Shown here: positions 20,567 to 47,724 of the stretch, in pieces | Layout of the letters: every line of letters starts with the position of its first letter | How positions within the stretch are numbered: position 1 is the first letter of the stretch | From: Leptospirillum sp. | GTDB taxonomy: Bacteria > Nitrospirota > Leptospirillia > Leptospirillales > Leptospirillaceae | DNA: 55,170 nucleotides | Direction: 5' to 3' | NCBI GenBank assembly: GCA_027323445.1 | Contig: DAHWBS010000007.1 | Coordinates: 1-55,170 of the forward strand | Translations under genes and position numbers: made by a program | The notes under the pieces: model-generated | Databases searched by the model: none | The model's input: the letters and a program-made list of their open reading frames with translations, nothing else | Told to the model about the DNA's origin: nothing

Positions 20567-23500
20567 TTGTTCTTAGTACGTCTGGCGCTGAAGCGTCCCT
20601 ATACAATATTTGTGCTGTGCGCCCTGATTACCATTATGGGTGTTCTCGCAGCGCAGAAAATGATCCTCGATATTTTTCCTGCCATCGACATTCCTGTGGT
20701 CAAGGTCGTCTGGAATTACCCGGGCCTCTCTCCCACAGACATGGAAGAAAGAATGGTCCTCATATCCGAGAGGGCCTACTCAACCACAGTCAATGGAATC
20801 AGCCGGATAGAATCGGAGTCTATCTCCGGCACAGGACTGATCAAGATCTATTTTCATCAGGGCGAAAGTATCGCCGCAGCAATTGCCCAAATCAGTGCTG
20901 TTTCAGAAACACTCCTCAGAATCTTTCCACCAGGAACAATGCCACCGAATATCATCAGTTACAATGCGGCCAATGTTCCAATCGTTCAGCTTGAAATTCA
21001 GGGAAAGCGATATTCGGAACAACAGCTTTATGATTATGGCCTGAACTTTATCAGGGTTTACCTCTTCACTATCCCAGGACTCTCAACACCTGCCCCGTTC
21101 GGGGGAAAAATGCGTCAGGTGATGGTGGATATCAACCCTCAAAAACTTCTTGGGTATGGTCTTTCACCGAATGACATCGTCAACACTCTGACCCGCTCGA
21201 ACATCATCGTACCGGCTGGAACAGCCCGGATTGGCACAAAAGAGCTGAATATCGAGATCAATGGAAGTCCGGACAAGCTGGCTGGTCTGGGAAATCTACC
21301 GGTGAAGGCCATGGGGTCAACCGTCGTCAGACTCAAGGATGTGGCCATTGTCCATGACGGATTTGCACCCCAGGAAAATGTTGTCAGAGTCAATGGGATG
21401 AGATCCACCTATCTCACGGTCTTCAAGCATGTTGGAGCGTCAACCCTGACAGTTGTTTCAGATGTCAAGCGTCTGATTCCGCATATTGAATCGCTTCTTC
21501 CTCCAGGGATTCACCTGAAGCCATTTTTTGACCAGTCTGTCTTTGTCAAGCAGGCTCTCGTTGATGTCATCATGGAAGGGGTCATCGGAACGCTACTTGT
21601 TTCACTGATGATTTATCTTTTTTTAGGAGATCTCCGCTCAACAGTCATCATTCTTCTGTCCATCCCGTTATCCATTCTTGCCGCCCTTTTCTTTTTGAAG
21701 ATTGCCGGAGAGTCCCTGAACCTGATGACCCTTGGAGGGCTTGCCCTGGCCATTGGAATGCTGGTCGATGATGCCACTGTTGCCATCGAAAACATTGAAC
21801 GGAACCTTTCACTGACAGAAGATCCCCTGCTCGCGGTCTATGATGGTGCCAATCAGGTCGCCCTTCCGGCATTTGTAGGAACTCTTTCCATTCTGATTGT
21901 CTTTTTTCCGGTTATTCTCCTGCAGGGAGTCTCACGCTTCCTTTTTACCCCACTCGCGCTTGCAGTCGTGTTTTCCATGCTGGCAAGCTACTTTCTCTCA
22001 AGGACTCTGGTCGTCACCCTTTCAAAAATCATCCATCAAAAGAAAATGGATCAAAAAACTCCGGAGCCCTTTTCCGGCTCATCTCTTGACACCCAAAAAG
22101 GAACTGAACGATCAGGGGTTTCCAAAATTTTTCTGCACTTCTTTGAAAAACTAAGGGCACGCTACCATTTATTATTAGGAAGAGTTCTGCTAAGACCCGG
22201 GAGAGTGGTTGCTGTCTGCCTTTTACTCGCAGGTGGCGGGATTCTTTTGCTAACAAGAACCGGATTTGATTTCTTTCCGAATGTCGATGCGGGTCTTCTG
22301 GCCCTTCATATGAGGGCACCGGATGGAACCAGAGTTGAAGTCTCCGAACAATATGTGGCAAAAGTCGAAAAAGCCCTGCATAAAATCATTCCACCGTCCG
22401 AGCTCAAGTCCGTAGATGTCAATATTGGCCTCCCTGTCTTCTACAATCTTGCATTTTATGAAACAGACAGCATTGGCCCAATGGACGCTGACTTTCTTAT
22501 CTCGCTAAAAGCCCGGCACCACTCAGTCTTCAGCTATCAGAAACAAATCCGGGAAGATCTGGCAAAGGAATTTCCTGATCTTTCCTTCTGGTTCAAACCG
22601 GCTGACATCATCAGTCAGGTTCTCGACTTTGGACTATCCGCTCCGATCGATATTCAGGTTGAAGGTCGAAATCTGGAGTCCTCCTATAAACTTGCAAAAA
22701 CAATCCGGCAAATCGTCAGACAAATCCCCGGGGCAGCAGATGTCTCCATCCCTCAGGTCATGCATTATCCAACCATTTTCATCCACACGCATCGGGCCAA
22801 TGCGCTAGAGGTCGGGCTAACACAAAATGATGTGGCCTCCAACCTCCTGGTATCTTTGGCCTCAAGTGCTCTGGTCGCTCCGAACTACTGGGTCAATCCG
22901 TTAAATGGAATCAACTATATCGTAGCGGTTCAGACTCCCATCCCGGAAATCGATTCCATCTCAGACCTGAAATCAATTCCCATCAGGGGGACAACACCTT
23001 TATCCGGAACGGTTTTAAACACCCAGTACCTCTCCAATATCGCCGATGTCAAGGAGGGAGTCTCTCCGGGATCGATCTCCCATTACACAGTACAAAGAGT
23101 GGTTGATGTTTTGGTCAATGCACAGGACCGGGATCTGGGATCCTTGACGATTGCGATCAAACACCAGATCAAAAAACTTGCCCTTCCCCCAGGAACAACC
23201 ATCCGGTATCGGGGACAAAGCGAGGCAATGATTGAGTCATTTACCCATTTTGGCCTTGGACTTATTCTGGCACTTCTTCTCGTCTATCTGCTTCTGGTCC
23301 TGAATTTTCAGTCTTTTCTTGATCCGTTCATCATTCTCGTATCCATTCCGATGGGACTTCTGGGTGTCACAATCGCTCTTTTCCTAACCCATACCACCCT
23401 GAATGTTGAGTCCGCAATGGGTGCCATTATGGTCATTGGCGTCGCAACAGCCAATAGTATCCTGCTGGTTACATTTGCAAATGATGAGCGCGGGAGGGGC

Positions 23501-23794
23501 CTCTCCGCCAGTGATGCGGCACAAAGCGCCGGATCGACAAGACTACGGCCCATTCTCATGACGGCAACCGCAATGATTTTGGGCATGTTGCCCATGGCGT
23601 TCGGAGCCGGGAGCGGAGGAGAGCAGAATGCTCCCCTCGGAAGAGCTGTTATCGGTGGCCTTTTTGTAGCAACAATCTCAACATTGTTTCTGGTTCCTGC
23701 CGTTTACAAGCTTTTGAGACACGAAATTCCCAATCGGTTCCGTTACGATGAAGAATTCAACCGCTCAATCAAAGACTCGACCAAAGAACATTAA
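20567..23794 (+). CDS. RND efflux transporter, HAE1-like
   Basis: Inner-membrane proton-driven pump of 1,075 residues with the RND two-fold repeat: transmembrane helix 1 near residues 11-30, a large periplasmic loop, a cluster of helices around 325-490, a second loop, and a second helix cluster (about 895-1060). The paired aspartates of the helix 4 proton relay are D401 and D402 in GMLVDDATVAIENIERN, as in HAE-type rather than heavy-metal pumps. The TTG start at 20567 has AGGGAG about 11 bases upstream. Neither a membrane-fusion protein nor a TolC gene is adjacent, so the partners must be elsewhere (a TolC homologue lies 20 kb away). Confidence 0.92.
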   Translation: MFLVRLALKRPYTIFVLCALITIMGVLAAQKMILDIFPAIDIPVVKVVWNYPGLSPTDMEERMVLISERAYSTTVNGISRIESESISGTGLIKIYFHQGESIAAAIAQISAVSETLLRIFPPGTMPPNIISYNAANVPIVQLEIQGKRYSEQQLYDYGLNFIRVYLFTIPGLSTPAPFGGKMRQVMVDINPQKLLGYGLSPNDIVNTLTRSNIIVPAGTARIGTKELNIEINGSPDKLAGLGNLPVKAMGSTVVRLKDVAIVHDGFAPQENVVRVNGMRSTYLTVFKHVGASTLTVVSDVKRLIPHIESLLPPGIHLKPFFDQSVFVKQALVDVIMEGVIGTLLVSLMIYLFLGDLRSTVIILLSIPLSILAALFFLKIAGESLNLMTLGGLALAIGMLVDDATVAIENIERNLSLTEDPLLAVYDGANQVALPAFVGTLSILIVFFPVILLQGVSRFLFTPLALAVVFSMLASYFLSRTLVVTLSKIIHQKKMDQKTPEPFSGSSLDTQKGTERSGVSKIFLHFFEKLRARYHLLLGRVLLRPGRVVAVCLLLAGGGILLLTRTGFDFFPNVDAGLLALHMRAPDGTRVEVSEQYVAKVEKALHKIIPPSELKSVDVNIGLPVFYNLAFYETDSIGPMDADFLISLKARHHSVFSYQKQIREDLAKEFPDLSFWFKPADIISQVLDFGLSAPIDIQVEGRNLESSYKLAKTIRQIVRQIPGAADVSIPQVMHYPTIFIHTHRANALEVGLTQNDVASNLLVSLASSALVAPNYWVNPLNGINYIVAVQTPIPEIDSISDLKSIPIRGTTPLSGTVLNTQYLSNIADVKEGVSPGSISHYTVQRVVDVLVNAQDRDLGSLTIAIKHQIKKLALPPGTTIRYRGQSEAMIESFTHFGLGLILALLLVYLLLVLNFQSFLDPFIILVSIPMGLLGVTIALFLTHTTLNVESAMGAIMVIGVATANSILLVTFANDERGRGLSASDAAQSAGSTRLRPILMTATAMILGMLPMAFGAGSGGEQNAPLGRAVIGGLFVATISTLFLVPAVYKLLRHEIPNRFRYDEEFNRSIKDSTKEH

Positions 23795-39019: not shown

Positions 39020-40039
39020 TCAACGACTGGAGCGGATGCTCCTGAACAGAAAAAACAAATCGACACAAAAAAGCGTCGGAGCCACAACAAAAGCAACGAG
39101 GTCCATGACAAACCTCATCCTCTTGGCTTTTACCATAACAACATCTTCTGGTGCCTGGAGAACAACCATCCATGGGTGTGGGGCTATTCCCTGCGTATCG
39201 CTCATCAAGGCTGTCCCGAAAAGATAATTGCTCCCTCTGATATCAGCCTTATAGCCCCCTGAGAATCCTTGTTTAAAATGCTCAAGAACTGAAGAGAGAC
39301 CAATTTTGTCCATTTTCTGGCCAATAAGCATATCTTTTGAGCTTGCCAGAATATCTCCATCAGTAGAAGCAATATAGGAAAGTCCCGGGGCTCCTTTTTT
39401 TCGAGGTTGAAAAAGAAAAGGGTGAAGTGTCGTCGACAGATTTTCAATTCCGACAAGATAGCCCAACGGACGCTCATCAGATGTCTGACCTTTATGAAGG
39501 ATAGGAACAGCTAAAAGAAGAAGGGCAAGATGGTTGACGGGATCGATAATCGGTTCAGAAAGTCTTGCAGCTCCCCCTTCGGATTTCAGGTCAGCAATAA
39601 GATTTGCGGCCTGGGCACGGTGCGGCTCCATGCCCCTGTTACCGACCCCTCCAAGGATTCTTCCTGACGGATCGGTTACCTCCCACCCACCAAAGCGTTG
39701 AATATGTCCCGAGAGAATATACTTCCCCAAAAGGTCCCGGATTCTGTCGGAGCTCCCCAGAATAAAAGGATCGGCCAGCTGATTTCCCAGATTCAGGGTA
39801 TCCCTGACATCCGAGATCATGATCTGATCAAGACCCGAGGCCATATCCCTCGCGGATTTTGGCAAAGGATTTCTGGTGACATAGTAGGTAGCCATCACCT
39901 CGCGATAATACAAGATGACCATGACGGAACTCGGAATAACCATCATCAGGAAAATGACAAGTCCCACATTCCATCGCCAGGATGAAGGTTTACGGGTTGA
40001 GGTCGGAGATGGCTTTGTCTCGGCCAAAATCTCTGTCAT
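39020..40039 (-). CDS. Membrane protein with periplasmic Cache-like sensor domain and no output domain
   Basis: The 339-residue product has a transmembrane helix at about 24-45, a periplasmic region of about 265 residues and a second helix near 311-332, then only about seven cytoplasmic residues. The periplasmic part has the double-Cache flavour of chemoreceptors and sensor kinases (WEVTDPSGRILGG, LGYLVGIENLS, YIASTDGDILASSKDMLIGQ). The HAMP and signalling domain that normally follow are absent, and the frame ends cleanly. The start is the ATG at 40039 with GGAG 9 bases before. It lies between an FNR-like reductase gene and the dehydrogenase-like gene. Confidence 0.65.
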   Translation of the reverse strand: MTEILAETKPSPTSTRKPSSWRWNVGLVIFLMMVIPSSVMVILYYREVMATYYVTRNPLPKSARDMASGLDQIMISDVRDTLNLGNQLADPFILGSSDRIRDLLGKYILSGHIQRFGGWEVTDPSGRILGGVGNRGMEPHRAQAANLIADLKSEGGAARLSEPIIDPVNHLALLLLAVPILHKGQTSDERPLGYLVGIENLSTTLHPFLFQPRKKGAPGLSYIASTDGDILASSKDMLIGQKMDKIGLSSVLEHFKQGFSGGYKADIRGSNYLFGTALMSDTQGIAPHPWMVVLQAPEDVVMVKAKRMRFVMDLVAFVVAPTLFCVDLFFLFRSIRSSR

Positions 40040-40141: not shown

Positions 40142-40885
40142 CTACCATTGTTCCTTGTGAACAGATCCTTCCGGAAAATGCATCCCCTGAAAAAAGCCGA
40201 CCGTCTGCTCGACCATACTTGGAGGCCCACAGATAAAAACGTCCTGACCACTGTATGAAGGAATCCGTTCAGGGAGAATTGAGGTTACCCTTCCATATGA
40301 TCCGGTGAAAACCTGATCAGGAGAAAGGGATCCGGAAATCGAGAGATGAACCCTGACACCTTTAGCCTGCCACTCCTTGATCTCCTCTTCATAGATGCAA
40401 TCCGTCCCGTGTCGATAACCATAAAAAAGCTCAATCGGCACCGGGCAGCTTTCTTTCAAAAGGGTCCGGATCATGGAGCGAAGGGGAGCGATTCCGCTTC
40501 CAGAACCAACAAAGAGATACCGTTCGGGAAAGGATTCTGGCGGATAGGCCATATGAAAAGCTTTCCCGTAAGGCCCCTCGATCAAAACAGGGTCACCGAT
40601 CTTTGATTCATGTATACGATTGGAAAAATACCCTCCTTCTCCCACTCTCGTTATTGTCAGATCAAGATGCCCCGACTTCAGATCAAGAGGAGAGGAAGCG
40701 ATTGAATAAGCTCGTCTGACCGGACGACCGTCCTCACGAAGAAAATCGGGAATGGAGGCCATAACGAACTGGCCGGCCATAAACGAAAAAGCCCCCGACG
40801 GAATCCCCAGACGATATGTATTAACCCTTGGTGTCTCTGGAATAATTGAAAGGATCGAAGACTCAACAACTTCACGTTTTGCCAT
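40142..40885 (-). CDS. Ferredoxin-NADP reductase-like FAD oxidoreductase
   Basis: The 247-residue protein starts with ATG at 40885 (MAKREVV); a longer TTG frame is excluded because it would run through the promoter. It has the FAD motif R58-A-Y-S61 (RRAYSIASSP), a YFSNR segment, the NAD(P) motif VGSGSGIAPLRSM (about 126-138) and the C-terminal CGPPSMVE (219-226). It ends without the terminal aromatic residue pattern of plant-type FNR. It would pass electrons between NAD(P)H and a ferredoxin, flavodoxin or other one-electron carrier. The strong promoter in front places transcription start at or next to the ATG, so the message is probably leaderless. Confidence 0.88.
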   Translation of the reverse strand: MAKREVVESSILSIIPETPRVNTYRLGIPSGAFSFMAGQFVMASIPDFLREDGRPVRRAYSIASSPLDLKSGHLDLTITRVGEGGYFSNRIHESKIGDPVLIEGPYGKAFHMAYPPESFPERYLFVGSGSGIAPLRSMIRTLLKESCPVPIELFYGYRHGTDCIYEEEIKEWQAKGVRVHLSISGSLSPDQVFTGSYGRVTSILPERIPSYSGQDVFICGPPSMVEQTVGFFQGMHFPEGSVHKEQW

Positions 40886-40891
40886 AAATGA

Positions 40892-40920
40892 ATTATCCCC
40901 CGCGAAAAAGGTAGTGTCAA
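40892..40920 (-). promoter_or_regulatory. Sigma-70 promoter giving a leaderless FNR-like message
   Basis: On the minus strand TTGACA (40920-40915) and GATAAT (40897-40892) are separated by exactly 17 bases. Only six bases (TCATTT) lie between the -10 and the ATG at 40885, so the expected start site is the A of ATG. No ribosome site fits within the transcript. Confidence 0.6.
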
Positions 40921-40927
40921 ACAAAGT

Positions 40928-40947
40928 TTTGAGGAGCGGACCTCAAA
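40928..40947 (-). terminator. Hairpin after the exporter operon
   Basis: TTTGAGG (40928-40934) and CCTCAAA (40941-40947) form a perfect 7-base-pair stem with a 6-base loop, about 80 bases after the end of the ABC permease gene and just before the next promoter. On the minus strand it is followed by ACTTTGTTT, a weak T-rich stretch. Confidence 0.4.
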
Positions 40948-41024: not shown

Positions 41025-41852
41025 TCAGGCACCGAGTTTCAGGGAGAACCCTTCCCTCCGGGCTCTTGCCATCACCCACCCAAAAACACCGAGGGCAATC
41101 AAAAGGTAGCAAGCGTCCAGAAAAAAAGCCACCATTAATTGTTCCCCGGGAAATCCTCCTCCATTGACCACCTGTCGCATTCCCTCAAAAACATGGGATG
41201 CGGGAACAAACATTGCGATATCCCGAAAAGCAGGAGGAAGAACGGAAACAGGGTTAAAAACCGCGCTGACCGGCTGAAAGAGAAAAATGACTCCCCAGGC
41301 AAGAACCTCGGCTTCCTGTCCAAAACGCAATATCAGAGCCGTTGTCAAAATACCAAGAGCCCACCCCATACAGAGAAGGGCCAAAACAAAGGGAACAAGA
41401 GAGAGTCCGATACTGAAAAGAGAAAAAGAAAAAAAATGGTACGCCAGGAAAATAGCAAGTCCGGAAGAAAGCGAAACCTTCAGGATTCCTGTAAGAATTG
41501 CTCCAAAAATAACATGGTAAGGAGTTAGCGGACTCACCAGCAGGTGATACAGATTCTTTGACCAGATTTCCTCAAGGAATACCATCGAGATGGACTGCTG
41601 TGACCGATAAAGCATGTCCCAGAGAAGAAGTGCCCCCAGAAGAGAATAGACAGCATGGGAAGCAATCAGTGAACCCTGTCTCAAGTACAGTGTCAGGAAC
41701 CCCCAGACAAGAAGATCCAGCAGTGGCCAGTAGAAGATCTCCATCCACCTTGGAAGACTCCGACGGTAAAGATAAAACTGGCGAAGCATCACACCAAGCA
41801 TAGGGCGGATTGCAAAAAGAGAAACGGAAGGTCGCTTCCCGATCGTTACCAT
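41025..41852 (-). CDS. ABC-2 type transporter permease
   Basis: The 275-residue inner-membrane protein has about six transmembrane helices and the ABC-2 layout: a cytoplasmic N-terminus, helices from residue 38, then the SKNLYHLLVSPLTPYHVIFGAIL segment that usually follows helix 2. A VLPPAFRDIAMFVPASHVFEGMRQVVNGG block near the end is typical of ABC-2 exporters of drugs, polysaccharides or antibiotics. It overlaps the ATPase gene by 7 bases and is the last gene of the tolC-like operon. The exported substrate is not apparent. Confidence 0.87.
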   Translation of the reverse strand: MVTIGKRPSVSLFAIRPMLGVMLRQFYLYRRSLPRWMEIFYWPLLDLLVWGFLTLYLRQGSLIASHAVYSLLGALLLWDMLYRSQQSISMVFLEEIWSKNLYHLLVSPLTPYHVIFGAILTGILKVSLSSGLAIFLAYHFFSFSLFSIGLSLVPFVLALLCMGWALGILTTALILRFGQEAEVLAWGVIFLFQPVSAVFNPVSVLPPAFRDIAMFVPASHVFEGMRQVVNGGGFPGEQLMVAFFLDACYLLIALGVFGWVMARARREGFSLKLGA

Positions 41853-42598
41853 GAGGCCGTTTTCCTGACTGTATCGAGAAAAAGTGCTTCCAGGTCAGAT
41901 GCAGAATCATTTTTTAAAAGATCTTCGATAACCCCTTCCTTGATGATTTTTCCCCCACCCAGAAGGATAATACGATCAGAAAGCCTCTCCACTTCCCTCA
42001 TGTTATGCGAGGTATATAAAAGGGACATACCTGTATCGAGCACCCTTTTCCGGAGAAACTCCCTCAGGTGCGCAGAGACTTCCGGGTCAAGTGTTGCCGT
42101 TGGTTCATCGAGAAAAAGAATTTCAGGCTCCGTGAGAAGGGCTTTTGCAATTCCCAGTTTTGCAACCTGCCCGGTCGAAAGGCTTCCTACCCGCCGATTG
42201 GCAATTGCTGACAATCCAAAATCTGAAAGAAGTGAATGGACCCTGGATTCCCAGTCACATAAGTTATAAATCAATGAATAAACTCTAAGATTTTCAAGAA
42301 CAGTAAGCGAGTATGGCAGGGAAAGATCTGTTGATGCGTAGTTGATTCTATGGGCTATCAGACGTCTATGCCTTGTCGCATCAACACCAAGAATATTGAG
42401 GGAGCCACTGTCTGGCCTCAGAAGTCCCAGAAGGATTTGAATCAGAGTTGATTTTCCCGCACCATTTGGGCCAACAATTGACAAGATTTCCCCACGAAAA
42501 AGCTCCAGGCTGACGCCTCCCAGGGCAATTCTGCTCCCGCCCATGAATGCTTTCCCAATATCTCGTGCTTCCAGAACTTTTTCAGTTGTCCCGGACAT
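41846..42598 (-). CDS. ABC transporter ATP-binding protein
   Basis: The 250-residue protein has Walker A GPNGAGKST (43-51), the signature LSTGQ (140-144), Walker B ILFLDEPTATLDP (160-172) and the switch histidine in YTSHNMREVE. It is of the single-domain CcmA/DrrA-like kind that pairs with ABC-2 permeases. It would energise export through the permease encoded immediately downstream (7-base overlap). The gene starts 18 bases after the single-helix membrane protein gene of the same operon. Confidence 0.93.
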   Translation of the reverse strand: MSGTTEKVLEARDIGKAFMGGSRIALGGVSLELFRGEILSIVGPNGAGKSTLIQILLGLLRPDSGSLNILGVDATRHRRLIAHRINYASTDLSLPYSLTVLENLRVYSLIYNLCDWESRVHSLLSDFGLSAIANRRVGSLSTGQVAKLGIAKALLTEPEILFLDEPTATLDPEVSAHLREFLRKRVLDTGMSLLYTSHNMREVERLSDRIILLGGGKIIKEGVIEDLLKNDSASDLEALFLDTVRKTASW

Positions 42599-42616
42599 GA
42601 AAGGTCAATCCTCCCG

Positions 42617-43255
42617 TCATGAAGGAACCTTTAGTCCAGAGAAGTGAAGAGGATAGCGTTTTTTCGACATCCCCTCGTTTCCCAGAAATCCTATATAAAG
42701 ATCAAACTTCCCGGTCCTTGGTTTTTTGATAAAATGGATGGGAAAAGTCACAATATCACCGGGCTTTAAAAGCCTGAACTTGTCCCAGGCAAGAGTCCCC
42801 TCCATTGAGCCCTGATGACCATCCACCCATCGGGGGGGAGTTGACAATATGAGGGAAATACCCTTTTCCCCCTCAAGCGTTGACTGGACATGAATGCTCA
42901 GAACCAGCTTGAATCCATCTCCTTCCGGCTGAATATCTCCGACAGATGCGATAAAGTAGCGATTTTCCGCGATCAATATGCTTTTTTTCGAAGCACCCAC
43001 ACCGGGAAACATTGTCGAAGGAGGTACCGGTAGCGGAACCGAATCCACCTGGGGTTGTCCTGGGCGTGACAGGGTATGGTGATTGGGAAGCGTCACATAA
43101 AAAAAGACGGTATAAAAGATCCCTGAAAGAAAAACAAGCGTTACAACTGATGCCAGTGCGTAAAATATTTTTTTCTTTCTCGGGTCGAATGACTCCTGAG
43201 TGATTCCCATCTGTGCAAATCTTTGACGGTCTTCATCTATTGGCTCTTTTTCCAT
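42617..43255 (-). CDS. Single-pass membrane protein with periplasmic beta domain, unknown
   Basis: I do not recognise the family. The start is placed at the ATG at 43255 (MEKEPIDED), 10 bases after GGGAGG; two upstream ATG codons are too close to that site. The 212-residue product has a charged cytoplasmic tail, one transmembrane helix at about 29-54, a proline-rich linker, and a beta-rich periplasmic domain (FKLVLSIHVQSTLEG, PRWVDGHQGSMEG, GKFDLYIGFLGNEG). It is not a standard membrane-fusion protein. Within the exporter operon it sits between the barrel gene and the ATPase gene, so it could bridge the inner-membrane exporter to the outer-membrane parts (inference). Confidence 0.6.
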   Translation of the reverse strand: MEKEPIDEDRQRFAQMGITQESFDPRKKKIFYALASVVTLVFLSGIFYTVFFYVTLPNHHTLSRPGQPQVDSVPLPVPPSTMFPGVGASKKSILIAENRYFIASVGDIQPEGDGFKLVLSIHVQSTLEGEKGISLILSTPPRWVDGHQGSMEGTLAWDKFRLLKPGDIVTFPIHFIKKPRTGKFDLYIGFLGNEGMSKKRYPLHFSGLKVPS

Positions 43256-43308
43256 GTTAATCATTCCTCCCGGACAAATTAAAAACATCTACACAACACG
43301 GACAATCC

Positions 43309-44043
43309 CTAAAAATGAAAAGTGATCCCCGCCACCAGGGGAGTCATAAAAAGGGCTTCCCCTGAAATAAATATCTCTGTCGGCGTTATTTCCATAAAAA
43401 CACCCATTGGCGAAGAAGGAACCCGCAGGGAAACACCAGCCCCCCCATCAACAGATACACCCAACGGATGGCCACTCAAAGCGCCGGCTCCGGATGCCGC
43501 AAGGTCGACTCCTCCCACATCAATACGGAGGTATGGGGCAACAACCCCATGGCCAAGCCATCCGTCCGGAAGCATCCGGGGAAACTCTCTTGCAAGACCG
43601 GTCCTGAGGATCCAGCCAGTAATACTTGCCGAACCCGGAACGGGAGATGATATGGGAGTCTGGGAAGGCTGTCCGAACAGGGAGTTCTGGGAAGAAGTCA
43701 CAAAGAGAGTCGGTCCCGGAGTCATCTGAAGGTAAGATCCATCCACATTCCATCGCCAATCAGACATTGAACCAGAAAGCGGTTTCTGCAGTTCGCCTCC
43801 GATCCCCAATGCACTGTTGAAGTAACGTGAGGGACCACTTCCCGTCAGCGTATAGTACGAGACAAAAGGAGCAATAGTCCAACCTCCACCCCAAAAACCG
43901 GACGGTGTTGGTTGAGAACCCTTCTGCGCCATGGGAACCTGAGGAATAAATGGAGAAGGGGGATCCGCCTGAGCCCTGGACGGAACCAGACAAACACACA
44001 GCAAGAACGCAACGCAGTAAAGGATCGCTTTCCCGTTACTCAT
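43309..44043 (-). CDS. Small outer-membrane beta-barrel-like protein
   Basis: The 244-residue product has a signal peptide (hydrophobic core 8-20, cleavage near SRAQA at about residue 26). Amphipathic beta strands follow, rich in G, W, Y and S (WTIAPFVSYYTLTG, WRWNVDGSYLQM, APYLRIDVGGVDL). The last residue is phenylalanine after ITFHF, the usual outer-membrane barrel end signal. Its ATG overlaps the stop of the TolC-like gene by 4 bases. No family assigned; an accessory outer-membrane component of the exporter is the simplest reading. Confidence 0.6.
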   Translation of the reverse strand: MSNGKAILYCVAFLLCVCLVPSRAQADPPSPFIPQVPMAQKGSQPTPSGFWGGGWTIAPFVSYYTLTGSGPSRYFNSALGIGGELQKPLSGSMSDWRWNVDGSYLQMTPGPTLFVTSSQNSLFGQPSQTPISSPVPGSASITGWILRTGLAREFPRMLPDGWLGHGVVAPYLRIDVGGVDLAASGAGALSGHPLGVSVDGGAGVSLRVPSSPMGVFMEITPTEIFISGEALFMTPLVAGITFHF

Positions 44044-45446
44044 GGAAGAGGTCCAACAGGAATCCGGTGATTTCCAAAGTCAAAATTGGTTCCCATATCT
44101 TTCTTGAGCTGAGCCATATCAATTGACTGCTGGGAGCGATCCCGCACAAGGCCGGACCTTGCCCTGGCCAAATCCCTCTCAGCTTGGGAAACGGCTACGG
44201 TTGTTCCGGTTCCGACACGAAATTCCTCTTCTGCCAAAGCGAGGTTTTTGACGGCTTGATCGGTCAGAACAGAGGAGTCCCGGATTTTGGCAGCATCCGT
44301 TCTCAAATTTAAAAGATCACTGTCAATGGCCTGGACAATTGTTTGTCGCAATGCTTCCCGCTGATCAATTTGCTGACGCTTCTGGGCTCTGGACTGCCTC
44401 ACCTGCTCCACGTTCAAAAAACCGTTAAAAATTGGGACATTGACAGTCGCCGCAGCTGACCAGTTATAGACAAGAGGAAAAAATTCGCTATCAAAAGAAT
44501 AGCTTCCCAGAAGAGAAACGGTGGGAAGAAACTGTGCCTGATTAAATCGGATAGCTTGTTCCTGAGCCCTGATCTGGCTATTGAGAACGCGCAAGTCCGG
44601 TCTTCGGGAGAGAGCCTGACTGACAGCAGACGGCTCATCAGGAATAAGAAGAGACGCATCGCTAACAGGAGCAACTCGATAAGGAGCTCGTCCAATAACG
44701 CCCATCGCATGATTTAACGCAAGCTCATCCACTCTGAGGTGATTTTCATCCTGAACCTCCGTCAGATGAAAATTAGAAAGATTAACCCGGGCATTGAGGA
44801 CATCATATCCATTTGCAACTCCATCAGAAAAACGCGCCTTGGCGACTGCCAGCTGAAGTTCCATGTCCTTTATGGTCAAACGGTCTACCTGAACCAGATT
44901 TTGATCTCTGAGCACCGAGAAATAAGCCTTTTCGACATTCAAAATGGTCTCGGACAAGGTTTCCTGAATCTGTCGACGTGAGGCACTTGCAAGTTCTTTG
45001 TTCTGGGCAACCTGGGCCCTGCGACGTCCAAAAGCAAAAAGGGTCTCGGACAAGGTAAGCTGCGCCTGATAGAAGTCGTAAGAAACAGGAGATTCCGGAA
45101 TGGTAAAAGGAAAGCCAGGCTGCGGACCAAAGTTGCCGGTTTCCCTTGTATAGGTGGTCGACCCGTTAAGAGTCGGATAATACTGACTCTTGGCAATTCC
45201 TATCCCGGCAATGGAGATGTTTGCGCCTTCCTGCGCCGCCTTGATTAATGGCTGGTCCCGCACAGCCATGCCGAGTGCATTTCTCAATGTCAGCAAATAA
45301 AAACCTGATTCATCAGACTTGTTGGCAGAAGAGTCGGAATCAACAGCAAAAGACACTGAGCAGAATGATAAAAATACCGCCAGTGAAAGTAGCTGAAAAA
45401 GGAAACACCTTCTCAGAGGCCGAATGATCCTGAAATGTATTTTCAA
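44040..45446 (-). CDS. TolC-family outer-membrane efflux protein
   Basis: The 468-residue protein has a signal peptide (cleavage near SVSFA at about residue 34) and the internal two-fold repeat of the TolC/OEP family: long coiled-coil helices with ARFSDGVANGYDVLNARVNL in the first half and EEFRVGTGTTVAVSQAERDLA in the second. SRRPDLRVLNSQIRAQEQAIRFNQAQFLPTVSLLGSY lies between them and is the family's best-known stretch. It forms an outer-membrane exit duct. It is the first gene of a five-gene operon with a barrel, a single-helix protein and an ABC exporter, and is divergent from a LysR gene. The TTG start at 45446 has only a weak ribosome site. Confidence 0.92.
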   Translation of the reverse strand: MKIHFRIIRPLRRCFLFQLLSLAVFLSFCSVSFAVDSDSSANKSDESGFYLLTLRNALGMAVRDQPLIKAAQEGANISIAGIGIAKSQYYPTLNGSTTYTRETGNFGPQPGFPFTIPESPVSYDFYQAQLTLSETLFAFGRRRAQVAQNKELASASRRQIQETLSETILNVEKAYFSVLRDQNLVQVDRLTIKDMELQLAVAKARFSDGVANGYDVLNARVNLSNFHLTEVQDENHLRVDELALNHAMGVIGRAPYRVAPVSDASLLIPDEPSAVSQALSRRPDLRVLNSQIRAQEQAIRFNQAQFLPTVSLLGSYSFDSEFFPLVYNWSAAATVNVPIFNGFLNVEQVRQSRAQKRQQIDQREALRQTIVQAIDSDLLNLRTDAAKIRDSSVLTDQAVKNLALAEEEFRVGTGTTVAVSQAERDLARARSGLVRDRSQQSIDMAQLKKDMGTNFDFGNHRIPVGPLP

Positions 45447-45593
45447 TGATTGCTCGCCATCTTGATCAAAAAATCACTCTCTTCCAAAAAGGTCTCTTTC
45501 CATTTCAGAAATTACATGATAAAATTTATTCATACATTGATCAATCCATCGAGCAAAATCATGGTGGGCGTTCTTTTGATACCTCGTAAATTC

Positions 45594-45608
45594 ATACTTT
45601 AAAAGTAT
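45594..45608. promoter_or_regulatory. LysR-type operator between the LysR gene and the exporter operon
   Basis: ATACTTT-A-AAAGTAT is a perfect 15-base palindrome that contains the T-N11-A core of LysR-type binding sites. It sits 33 bases before the LysR ATG in the 195-base divergent gap. A second imperfect dyad, ATGATAAAA/TTTATTCAT (45516-45533), lies nearer the tolC-like gene and could be an activation half-site. Confidence 0.55.
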
Positions 45609-45641
45609 TTTATTGCTACAGAAACCCAAAAGGGACACATT

Positions 45642-46562
45642 ATGACACTCTCCCAAATTCACACATTTCTTACGGTAACCCAAACGTTGAACTTTTCTCA
45701 GGCGGCCAAAATACTGGGGGTCACCCAACCGGCAGTCTCGACACAAATCCAGCTTCTCGAAGAGGAATTTGGGGTCAAGTTGTTCAACCGGGTCGGCCGA
45801 AGGGTTTTTTTATCTCCCAATGGAATTCTCTTTCTCGACCATGCAAAAAGCATCTGGGACCAAGTTAAAAATACATCCAGAATCATGACAGAAAAAATGC
45901 CCCCCATAAAAGTCGAACAGCTTTCACTCGGAATCGGGTTTGCAACAGGGTTTACCCGGAATACCCCTTTTACATCTTTTGTACGTGGAACCTATAAAAA
46001 CGCAACCGTCTCAATTCATCAGGGACTCGATCAGGATATGATCTCAGAACTCATTACCGGAAAAACAGATATCTTGCTAACCCATGTTCCGGATGCACCC
46101 CAAATCAAAAATGGACTCAGCCATTTATCCGTTCATCCAGTTGGAGTACCGTCCAATCTACTGATTCTGGCCTCTCCAACAGTTTCAAGAGAAAAGTGGC
46201 AAAGAGATGTCGGCACACTAAAATCTTTTCCCCTTATCCTCCCAAACAAAAAAAATCTGTTAAGAGACTTTATTGAATATGAAGCTCAAAAAAACGCTAT
46301 CCCGCTTAACGTCACCATGGAAACAACAGACACTGATCTCATTCTGAAAATTGTCATGACAGGTGTCGGAATAACCATCCTTCCAGCTTCTGCTGCAAAA
46401 AATGAGCTGGAAATCGGCTCAATCATCGGGCTTTCTCTACCAGATTTTCTTGCCAATTCTACCCTTTGCGCAATTACGCGGCGGGAAAGCGAAGAAGAAC
46501 CGTCTCCCTTGGTAAGGCTTGGCACAAGAATATTTACATCCGGATGGATGGAAAAAAGCTGA
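45642..46562 (+). CDS. LysR-family transcriptional regulator
   Basis: The 306-residue protein has the N-terminal winged helix-turn-helix of LysR proteins (residues 1-60: FLTVTQTLNFSQAAKILGVTQPAVSTQIQLLEEEFGVKLFNR) and a C-terminal effector-binding domain (about 92-295) with two periplasmic-binding-like lobes, including KIVMTGVGITILPASA. ATG start. It is divergent from the tolC-like exporter operon and has a fitting palindrome in front, so it most likely controls that operon and itself. The gene is visibly A+T-richer than the flagellar genes to its right. Confidence 0.94.
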   Translation: MTLSQIHTFLTVTQTLNFSQAAKILGVTQPAVSTQIQLLEEEFGVKLFNRVGRRVFLSPNGILFLDHAKSIWDQVKNTSRIMTEKMPPIKVEQLSLGIGFATGFTRNTPFTSFVRGTYKNATVSIHQGLDQDMISELITGKTDILLTHVPDAPQIKNGLSHLSVHPVGVPSNLLILASPTVSREKWQRDVGTLKSFPLILPNKKNLLRDFIEYEAQKNAIPLNVTMETTDTDLILKIVMTGVGITILPASAAKNELEIGSIIGLSLPDFLANSTLCAITRRESEEEPSPLVRLGTRIFTSGWMEKS

Positions 46563-46581: not shown

Positions 46582-47172
46582 TTACCGGGTTGAATATTTA
46601 AAATTCTGGGCTTGCCCGCCGGAAGCCCCGCAGTTTACGAAAAAATAATAGTTGCAGGTCAATGAAAAAGGATTACCATTTTGGCCTCCGAAAGAAGGAT
46701 TATAGGCGGCAGGAGGAACACCGACTTGTCCGTAGGGGACCATAGGAGGCTGGGCAAACTGGTTCAGCAAGGTTGTCGGCCCCATGGAGAAAGCTTGAAC
46801 CGGTGCTGAGATTCCTTCTCCCTGCTGAATCCCTCCTCCCAATATAGGCCCAAGAGAAAACAAAACAGGCGAGCCAGGCAAAAATGACCCGGGCGGAAGC
46901 CCCAGAGCAGGAGAGATAATCGGAGTCGACAATGGAACGATCGGGAGCGACAAGCTTGGCTCTTGAGGTACTAACGTTCCCGGAGACTGGCCCAAAGGAG
47001 AACTCTGTGAGGAATTAAAAGGAGTAACGGGTGGAATAGCCACAAAGTTTGGCGCGGATGGCAAAATACTGATACCAGCTCCATCTGCCAAAACAGCCTT
47101 CCCGAAAGAAATAATGGCAAGGCAGACCCACCACAGGATCAGCCTTTCACCCCGCATCGCAACACTCTTCAT
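46582..47172 (-). CDS. Proline/glycine/serine-rich exported protein, unknown
   Basis: I do not recognise the family. The start is set at the ATG at 47172 (MKSVAMRGERL, 196 residues), with AGGG close upstream; ATG at 47157 is an alternative. A signal peptide (hydrophobic core about 12-26, cleavage near VLADG) is followed by a low-complexity body dominated by P, S, G, L and I with repeated PxxP and SPxL patterns. Near the end are two cysteines (LTCNYYFFVNCGA), which could form a disulfide. It may be a surface or periplasmic structural protein. It converges on the LysR gene with about 20 bases between. Confidence 0.5.
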   Translation of the reverse strand: MKSVAMRGERLILWWVCLAIISFGKAVLADGAGISILPSAPNFVAIPPVTPFNSSQSSPLGQSPGTLVPQEPSLSLPIVPLSTPIISPALGLPPGSFLPGSPVLFSLGPILGGGIQQGEGISAPVQAFSMGPTTLLNQFAQPPMVPYGQVGVPPAAYNPSFGGQNGNPFSLTCNYYFFVNCGASGGQAQNFKYSTR

Positions 47173-47263
47173 GTCCCTTGCCTCTGCTATCCCTATAGAA
47201 GTGAGCATCAGAACATTAACCGTTTCATTTTACCAGACACAACCCGTTGAAGAAATGACTGCT

Positions 47264-47302
47264 CCCCACGGCTAAAGCCGGGGGCTTCCGGGGGCTAACC
47301 CC
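47264..47302 (-). repeat. Right-end hairpins of the TnpB element, possible omega-RNA scaffold
   Basis: A 9-base-pair stem with a bulged A (47264-47284) and a 4-base-pair stem (47291-47302) lie directly downstream of and overlapping the tnpB stop. In full IS200/IS605 elements this region, with the 3' end of tnpB, forms the omega RNA that guides TnpB. Whether any RNA is made here is unknown. Confidence 0.5.
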
Positions 47303-47642
47303 GAGACTCCAGCCCGAGTCTCAAAATATTCAGAGAGGCGTTGTGGTCCCGATCTTTTTTCATCCCGCAGCACGGACAGGAATAGGTCCGTTCGGACAAC
47401 GGCATTTTCTGCCGGTGGCCGCAGGAGGAACAGTCTTGAGACGTATAGGGCGGATTGATCTTCTTGAACTCTCGACCGGCGCTTAAAGCCTTGTACGAGA
47501 GAAAGGAGAAAAATTGCGACCACGCCACATCGCGGATGTTTTCGTTCAAACATCGGTTGGAAAGACGAAGCCCGTTTTTCAATTCTGGAAGAGTTTCCCG
47601 TTTACGAGTCGGATACAGCCGATACTTAAATGTTTTACGCAT
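47295..47642 (-). pseudogene. tnpB: Truncated TnpB (IS605 OrfB) nuclease
   Basis: The frame starts at the ATG at 47642 with MRKTFKYRLYPT, the standard TnpB N-terminus. After about 25 residues it jumps to VAWSQFFSFLSYKAL and REFKKINPPYTSQDCSSCGH, the end of the RuvC-like core with the zinc finger (CSSCG and CPCCG) and the DRDHNAS motif holding the last RuvC aspartate. At 115 residues, against roughly 350-400 for an intact protein, the first two RuvC acidic residues are lost, so it should be inactive as a nuclease. The join is in frame, as in internally deleted derivative elements. Confidence 0.8.
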
Positions 47643-47693
47643 AAACAAATAATGCATTTAATTTTCTCGCAAGTCAAACCAGGAACACGCATT

Positions 47694-47724
47694 ATATCCT
47701 TTCCCTGAAAGAAGGAGAGGATAT
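47694..47724 (-). terminator. Stem-loop at the end of fliA
   Basis: ATATCCTTTCC (47694-47704) pairs with GGAGAGGATAT (47714-47724) over 11 positions with one G-T pair and a 9-base loop, immediately after the fliA stop codon. No strong T-run follows. It may end the flagellar transcript or mark the left end of the TnpB element. Confidence 0.4.

What the first reader, a model, noticed from the sequence alone, without database searches (positions are those of the whole stretch)
41025..45641. Five-gene trans-envelope exporter with an extra barrel and an unusual linker protein
tolC-like, small barrel, single-helix periplasmic-domain protein, ABC ATPase and ABC-2 permease are packed with overlaps, opposite a LysR gene. 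ABC-2 exporters rarely work with TolC without a classic adaptor. Here an unrecognised one-helix beta-domain protein and an additional barrel take that place. This is a candidate for an undescribed export system.
Basis: inference. Interest (0 to 1): 0.6.

Follow-up and report, generated by a model that had tools for sequence, protein, structure and literature searches.

The report
Five-gene ABC-2/TolC exporter operon
A five-gene operon, kept in the same order across the iron-oxidising Leptospirillum family, joins an ordinary inner-membrane ABC pump to a TolC outer-membrane channel and to two proteins of unknown family, one of which stands where the usual adaptor would be; whether it does the adaptor's job is untested.

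Summary
TolC (PF02321), a small 8-strand outer-membrane barrel, a one-helix protein (HELIX), an ABC ATPase and an ABC-2 permease lie at 45446-41025 on the minus strand, divergent from a LysR gene. HELIX matches no Pfam or NCBIfam family. It models as one membrane helix, a conserved linker (VPLPVPP) and an Ig-like sandwich, with no HlyD-type fold and no TolC-binding RLS motif. The order is intact in 17 of 21 sampled genomes of the family, at 32-87% HELIX identity.

Corrections: only two of four junctions overlap. The barrel is not special to this exporter; a paralogue accompanies TolC of the neighbouring RND pump operon, which has a normal adaptor (with RLS motif) and sits across LysR in every relative whose contig reaches that far, but not in this window. 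The ATPase-permease pair is a single-copy system, about 50% identical, in much of Nitrospirota; 18 non-family loci examined have no HELIX or co-oriented TolC beside it. So this is a lineage-specific trans-envelope extension of an ordinary ABC-2 exporter. That HELIX replaces an adaptor is possible but unproven. New variant of a known kind.

The parts
44040..45446 (-). TolC-type outer membrane factor, 468 aa, TTG start, signal peptide by inspection
   Evidence: PF02321 8.4e-52, two repeats; OprM/TolC structures by phmmer; 57-92% identity to positional orthologues
43309..44043 (-). BARREL: small 8-strand outer-membrane barrel, 244 aa, N-terminal hydrophobic helix, C-terminal Phe
   Evidence: AF2 pLDDT 72.8, pTM 0.62; Foldseek to OmpA/OmpX/NspA/OmpW; no Pfam or NCBIfam; found only in this family, where 18 of 20 genomes that have it hold a second copy
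42617..43255 (-). HELIX: cytoplasmic tail (1-26), TM helix (25-55), conserved linker with VPLPVPP (53-85), Ig-like beta sandwich (95-209), 212 aa
   Evidence: AF2 pLDDT 79, sandwich mostly above 85; Foldseek only generic Ig-like folds; no Pfam, NCBIfam or significant PDB sequence match; conserved linker; family-restricted
41846..42598 (-). ABC ATPase, 250 aa, Walker A GPNGAGKS, signature LSTGQ, Walker B ILFLDEP, H-loop SH
   Evidence: PF00005 1.9e-32; best NCBIfam models DrrA, PQQ-ABC, NodI, all below cut-off; motifs
41025..41852 (-). ABC-2 permease, 275 aa
   Evidence: PF12698 and PF01061 above cut-off; weak YadH-like PRK15066; matches in 154 of 296 Nitrospirota genomes, almost always one per genome
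45642..46562 (+). Divergent LysR-type regulator, candidate regulator of the operon
   Evidence: PF00126 and PF03466; same divergent position in all relatives whose contig covers it
45447..45641 (.). Shared LysR/TolC regulatory region with a conserved core and an interrupted dyad TTGCTCGCCATCTTGATCAA / TTGATCAATCCATCGAGCAA
   Evidence: core GTCTCTTTCCATTTCAGAAATTACATGATAAAATTTATTCAT identical in the congeneric genome; dyad, 75% complementary
40886..40947 (-). Downstream boundary: stem-loop, then TTGACA-17-GATAAT about 6 nt before an ATG of the FAD/NAD(P)H oxidoreductase gene
   Evidence: promoter conserved in L029, L030, L033, L041, not seen in L035

Best explanation
The operon encodes one envelope exporter specific to Leptospirillaceae-type Nitrospirota. 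An ordinary ABC-2 pump (ATPase plus permease) moves a substrate, probably a small hydrophobic or amphipathic molecule, out of the cytoplasm. A dedicated TolC-type channel carries it across the outer membrane. HELIX is anchored beside the permease by its single helix; its conserved linker and Ig-like domain act in the periplasm as an accessory that couples the permease to TolC or holds the substrate. The small barrel is an outer-membrane partner of TolC. LysR controls the operon. Shown: gene content, order, conservation, purifying selection, predicted folds, absence of an adaptor-family protein in the operon. Inferred: that the five products form one complex, that HELIX does the coupling, the substrate, and the role of LysR.
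For: Same five genes, order and strand in 17 of 21 sampled family genomes; HELIX found in 19 of 21, the other two being incomplete MAGs. HELIX and barrel occur only in genomes of this family in the samples searched, and HELIX was always found in this operon. All five genes under purifying selection. No HlyD-family protein in the operon; HELIX has neither the adaptor fold nor the RLS motif, while the neighbouring RND adaptor has it in 13 of 13. The HELIX linker is as conserved as the helix (0.74 against 0.77, 12 of 33 positions invariant) although predicted disordered, as expected of a binding segment. Divergent promoter region, conserved promoter at the next gene, and a terminator-like stem after the permease in the congeneric genome delimit the unit.
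Against: The ATPase-permease pair is present in much of the phylum, and in the 18 non-family loci examined it has no HELIX, no barrel and no co-oriented TolC next to it, so the core does not need them. HELIX has no feature known to bind TolC. No interaction, expression or substrate data. Operon membership does not prove a complex.
Confidence: 0.42

Rival explanations
1. The ABC-2 pair works alone at the inner membrane, as it presumably does elsewhere in the phylum, and releases substrate or lipid into the periplasm or outer leaflet. TolC, barrel and HELIX are co-regulated envelope proteins doing related jobs but not one conduit; HELIX is a periplasmic acceptor or chaperone.
For: Orthologues at about 45-55% identity, nearly always single-copy, in 154 of 296 Nitrospirota genomes, with no HELIX, barrel or co-oriented TolC beside them in the 18 loci looked at; contexts vary, a multihaem cytochrome upstream being the only repeated one. 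HELIX has a generic Ig-like fold.
Against: Strict retention of TolC-barrel-HELIX-ATPase-permease across five genera; gene overlaps at two junctions.
Confidence: 0.3
2. It is a normal tripartite pump whose adaptor comes in trans: the RND-type adaptor of the neighbouring TolC2-MFP-RND operon, or another genomic adaptor, bridges the permease and TolC; HELIX is a minor accessory.
For: In every relative whose contig covers it, a TolC2-MFP-RND operon lies across LysR; its adaptor is above the TIGR01730 cut-off and has the RLS motif in 13 of 13. The window's own MAG still has other adaptors.
Against: That RND operon has its own TolC and transporter. Its orthologue was not found in the window's MAG (best match 35%), though the MAG is only 73% complete. 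RND adaptors seldom serve ABC-2 permeases (established knowledge).
Confidence: 0.22
3. HELIX is a sensor or assembly factor for the permease (for instance gating it by ligand binding in the Ig domain), not a conduit element.
For: Single-pass topology with a small beta sandwich in the periplasm.
Against: No homologue with such a function; the short tail (about 26 residues) is the least conserved part (0.37), which argues against signalling to the cytoplasm.
Confidence: 0.06

Closest known systems
Tripartite ABC-2 pumps with an HlyD-type adaptor (YbhFSR with its adaptor; Helicobacter pylori HP1486-HP1489)
   Same: ABC-2 permease and a TolC-type protein working or encoded together; HP1486-1489 described in PMC9570263, YbhFSR in PMC8277102
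   Different: Those have a membrane fusion protein; here its place holds an Ig-domain protein without adaptor fold or RLS motif, plus a small barrel
NodIJ with NodT (nodulation-factor export)
   Same: ABC-2 pump with a TolC-superfamily protein in the same operon in some rhizobia and no adaptor gene (from memory; the ATPase scores to NodI models)
   Different: No HELIX or barrel; the role of NodT is itself unsettled (PMC7769827 reports mixed nodT mutant results); NodI model cut-off not reached
DrrAB / YadGH-type two-gene ABC-2 exporters
   Same: Closest family-model matches of the ATPase (DrrA) and permease (YadH-like PRK15066, DrrB)
   Different: Scores below all curated cut-offs; those systems have no TolC or HELIX partner encoded with them (established knowledge)
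LptB2FGC and capsule ABC-2 exporters (KpsMT with KpsE/KpsD)
   Same: A single- or double-pass periplasmic protein links an ABC transporter to the outer membrane without an HlyD adaptor (established knowledge); functional analogy only
   Different: HELIX is an Ig-like sandwich; neither LptC nor a capsule co-polymerase protein appears in the 50 best structure matches, and there is no significant sequence match

Membership tests
HlyD/AcrA-type periplasmic adaptor (HELIX as member) | Match to an adaptor family model (PF16576, PF13437, TIGR01730 etc.) | tested here: not met
   No Pfam or NCBIfam hit at E up to 1 for the window protein and no adaptor hit in 18 homologues; the neighbouring RND adaptor hits at once
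HlyD/AcrA-type periplasmic adaptor (HELIX as member) | Alpha-hairpin plus lipoyl/barrel domains | tested here: not met
   Model has one N-terminal TM helix and a beta sandwich, no hairpin; hhalign to the RND adaptor profile probability 0.3%
HlyD/AcrA-type periplasmic adaptor (HELIX as member) | RLS/RLT TolC-binding motif RxxxLxxxxxxS/T (PMC3391258) | tested here: not met
   Absent from the periplasmic part of all 18 HELIX proteins (two have a match at the start of the TM helix); present in 13 of 13 neighbouring adaptors
ABC-2 exporter | ABC ATPase with intact motifs plus ABC-2 permease domain | tested here: met
TolC/OMF family | Two OEP repeats above Pfam cut-off | tested here: met
   PF02321 176 bits, 2 stretches
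Tripartite ABC-TolC pump | Physical complex of transporter, periplasmic bridge and TolC | not testable with these tools
OmpA/OmpX/OmpW-type small barrels (BARREL) | 8-strand beta barrel with signal peptide and C-terminal aromatic residue | tested here: met
   Model and matches; C-terminal GITFHF, final Phe invariant; signal peptide by inspection only
OmpA/OmpX/OmpW-type small barrels (BARREL) | Sequence membership in a known family model | tested here: not met
   No Pfam, NCBIfam or significant PDB sequence match

The most novel reading that the evidence does not exclude
HELIX founds a second, non-HlyD class of periplasmic linker: a single-pass Ig-domain protein that docks an ABC-2 permease to TolC through its conserved proline-rich linker, with an OmpA-like barrel assisting TolC, making a trans-envelope pump without a classic adaptor.
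Probability: 0.18. Interest if true: 0.68.

Novelty: new variant of a known kind. Interest (0 to 1): 0.42.

Why it matters
TolC-dependent export is thought to need a hexameric HlyD/AcrA-type adaptor with a helical hairpin. A conserved ABC-2/TolC operon that lacks one and has a family-specific Ig-domain protein in its place gives a compact five-gene test of whether TolC can be engaged by another fold. It is also a clear case of a lineage adding an outer-membrane stage to an existing two-gene exporter, in acidophilic iron oxidisers used in bioleaching.

Tried and rejected
HELIX as a diverged HlyD/AcrA adaptor: rejected by family scans, fold, RLS motif and hhalign. HELIX relatives outside the family: one weak hit (E 0.0035, 46 residues, G124) on the strand opposite a 1873-codon frame, taken as chance. 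The genome-contig scan used strict peptide patterns and returned only Leptospirillum or 'Nitrospirae' MAG loci; distant relatives could be missed. The oxidoreductase and Cache-like genes as part of the operon: conserved next door but with their own conserved promoter, so left out of the core. A first adaptor alignment (A4) held one out-of-frame row and was replaced by A5. Literature: no paper describing this operon was found; a L. ferriphilum salt study reports two TolC genes changing in opposite directions (PMC9053815), but I did not map them to this locus.

Full report
WHAT IS THERE. The window lies in a 73%-complete MAG. Record titles of the nearest named loci are Leptospirillum sp. and 'Nitrospirae bacterium', and one congeneric genome is a single 2.56-Mb contig (G001; probably L. 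ferrooxidans, an inference from size and memory). On the minus strand, in order of transcription, lie TolC 45446-44040, BARREL 44043-43309, HELIX 43255-42617, ATPase 42598-41846 and permease 41852-41025; LysR is divergent at 45642-46562. TolC matches PF02321 twice; the ATPase matches ABC_tran with complete motifs; the permease matches two ABC-2 models above cut-off; BARREL and HELIX match nothing in Pfam or NCBIfam. Junctions: TolC/BARREL overlap 4 bp, BARREL-HELIX gap 53 bp, HELIX-ATPase gap 18 bp, ATPase/permease overlap 7 bp. HELIX and ATPase have Shine-Dalgarno-like sites.

CONSERVATION. Of 21 genomes of the family in the sample, 19 have HELIX; the two without it are incomplete MAGs (78% and 80%). 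The five genes stand in the same order and orientation in 17; in three of these TolC is cut by a contig end, and two further genomes are split by contig ends. HELIX identity to the window falls to 32-34% in the commonest genus while the order stays fixed. dN/dS against the congeneric genome: TolC 0.049, BARREL 0.145, HELIX 0.053, ATPase 0.053, permease 0.042. HELIX and BARREL were found in none of the 275 and 127 other phylum genomes searched, apart from one weak 46-residue hit to HELIX judged chance.

THE UNKNOWN PROTEINS. HELIX was modelled from an 18-sequence alignment (mean pLDDT 79; sandwich mostly above 85): a poorly conserved tail, one TM helix, a linker of low predicted confidence but high conservation containing VPLPVPP, and an Ig-like sandwich. 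Structure matches are generic Ig-like folds (ApaG, adaptin ear, pMMO, nanobodies); none of the 50 listed is an HlyD/AcrA adaptor or LptC. It lacks the RxxxLxxxxxxS/T motif by which adaptors bind TolC (PMC3391258), while the adaptor of the neighbouring RND operon has it in 13 of 13 genomes (one with V beside the consensus in its variable part), so the test works. Profile comparison of HELIX with that adaptor gives 0.3% probability. HELIX is therefore not an adaptor by descent as far as these tests reach; whether it works as one is open. BARREL was modelled as an 8-strand barrel of OmpA/OmpX/OmpW type.

SURROUNDINGS THAT CHANGE THE READING. In every relative whose contig reaches far enough, a second efflux operon lies across LysR: TolC2, an HlyD-type adaptor and an AcrB-type RND pump. 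A second, diverged BARREL goes with it: 18 of the 20 genomes with BARREL hits show two or more copies, the second directly before TolC2 where mapped. So the small barrel goes with TolC operons in this family rather than with the ABC-2 exporter as such. A classic adaptor is available in trans. In the window itself that RND operon is absent: after a 208-aa protein and a TnpB-like fragment the sequence continues into flagellar genes (names by inspection), and the RND orthologue was not found in this MAG (best 35%).

THE CORE PAIR. The permease has a match, nearly always one, in 154 of 296 Nitrospirota genomes, outside the family mostly at 45-55% identity. In 18 such loci examined the ATPase is usually adjacent, but no HELIX or BARREL is found, and TolC-like hits occur only in two loci, as part of an opposite-strand set that looks like MacAB. 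Contexts differ; the repeated one is a six-CXXCH cytochrome upstream of the ATPase, in 6 loci, of NapC/NirT type in the two scanned with Pfam. The exporter core is thus widespread, and its TolC, BARREL and HELIX are a family-specific addition.

LIMITS OF THE UNIT. The next gene (FAD/NAD(P)H oxidoreductase) and a dCache-like membrane protein follow in all relatives whose contigs extend that far, but the oxidoreductase has its own TTGACA-17-GATAAT promoter about 6 nt before ATG, conserved in four of five relatives inspected, and the congeneric genome has a stem plus T-run directly after the permease.

MECHANISM AND VERDICT. Most likely the five products form one exporter in which HELIX couples or assists the ABC-2 permease in the periplasm and TolC provides the outer-membrane exit. 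Shown: genes, order, conservation, folds by prediction, absence of an adaptor in the operon. Inferred: the complex, the role of HELIX, a small hydrophobic substrate (from DrrAB/YadGH-like resemblance, below curated cut-offs), regulation by LysR. Main rivals are a stand-alone ABC-2 pump with co-regulated envelope proteins, and an adaptor supplied in trans. ABC-2/TolC tripartite pumps are known (YbhFSR, PMC8277102; HP1486-1489, PMC9570263), and NodIJ-NodT (from memory) is a precedent without an adaptor gene, so the kind is known. The variant, with its two family-specific proteins, appears undescribed in the literature searched.

Noticed in passing
46582-47700: Synteny with the congeneric genome breaks after a 208-aa protein (46582-47208 -): a TnpB-like fragment (47295-47657 -) and then a flagellar/sigma-factor block replace the TolC2-adaptor-RND operon seen there in every relative. 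Possible IS-linked rearrangement or a mis-join of the MAG.
   Followed up: partly
L085, L086, L087, L088, L091, L092 (non-family Nitrospirota): The orthologous ABC-2 ATPase-permease pair lies just downstream of a six-CXXCH cytochrome (NapC/NirT-like in the two scanned), near MobB/MoeA and TatC genes in L086; a possible clue to the ancestral role.
   Followed up: partly
40885-40925 and L029, L030, L033, L041: Conserved TTGACN-17-GATAAT promoter ending 5-6 nt before the ATG of the FAD/NAD(P)H oxidoreductase gene, suggesting a leaderless transcript kept across genera.
   Followed up: partly
G002 (same genus, 80% complete): Lacks HELIX, BARREL, permease, the Cache-like protein and the RND orthologue all together: either one assembly gap or loss of the whole dual-efflux island.
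   Followed up: partly
39020-40039: dCache-like protein with a TM helix at each end and no cytoplasmic output domain, conserved next to the operon in the family; weak PF02743 match.
   Followed up: no
20570-23755: A separate full-length AcrB-type RND pump in the same window, 35% identical to the RND pump that neighbours this operon in relatives.
   Followed up: no
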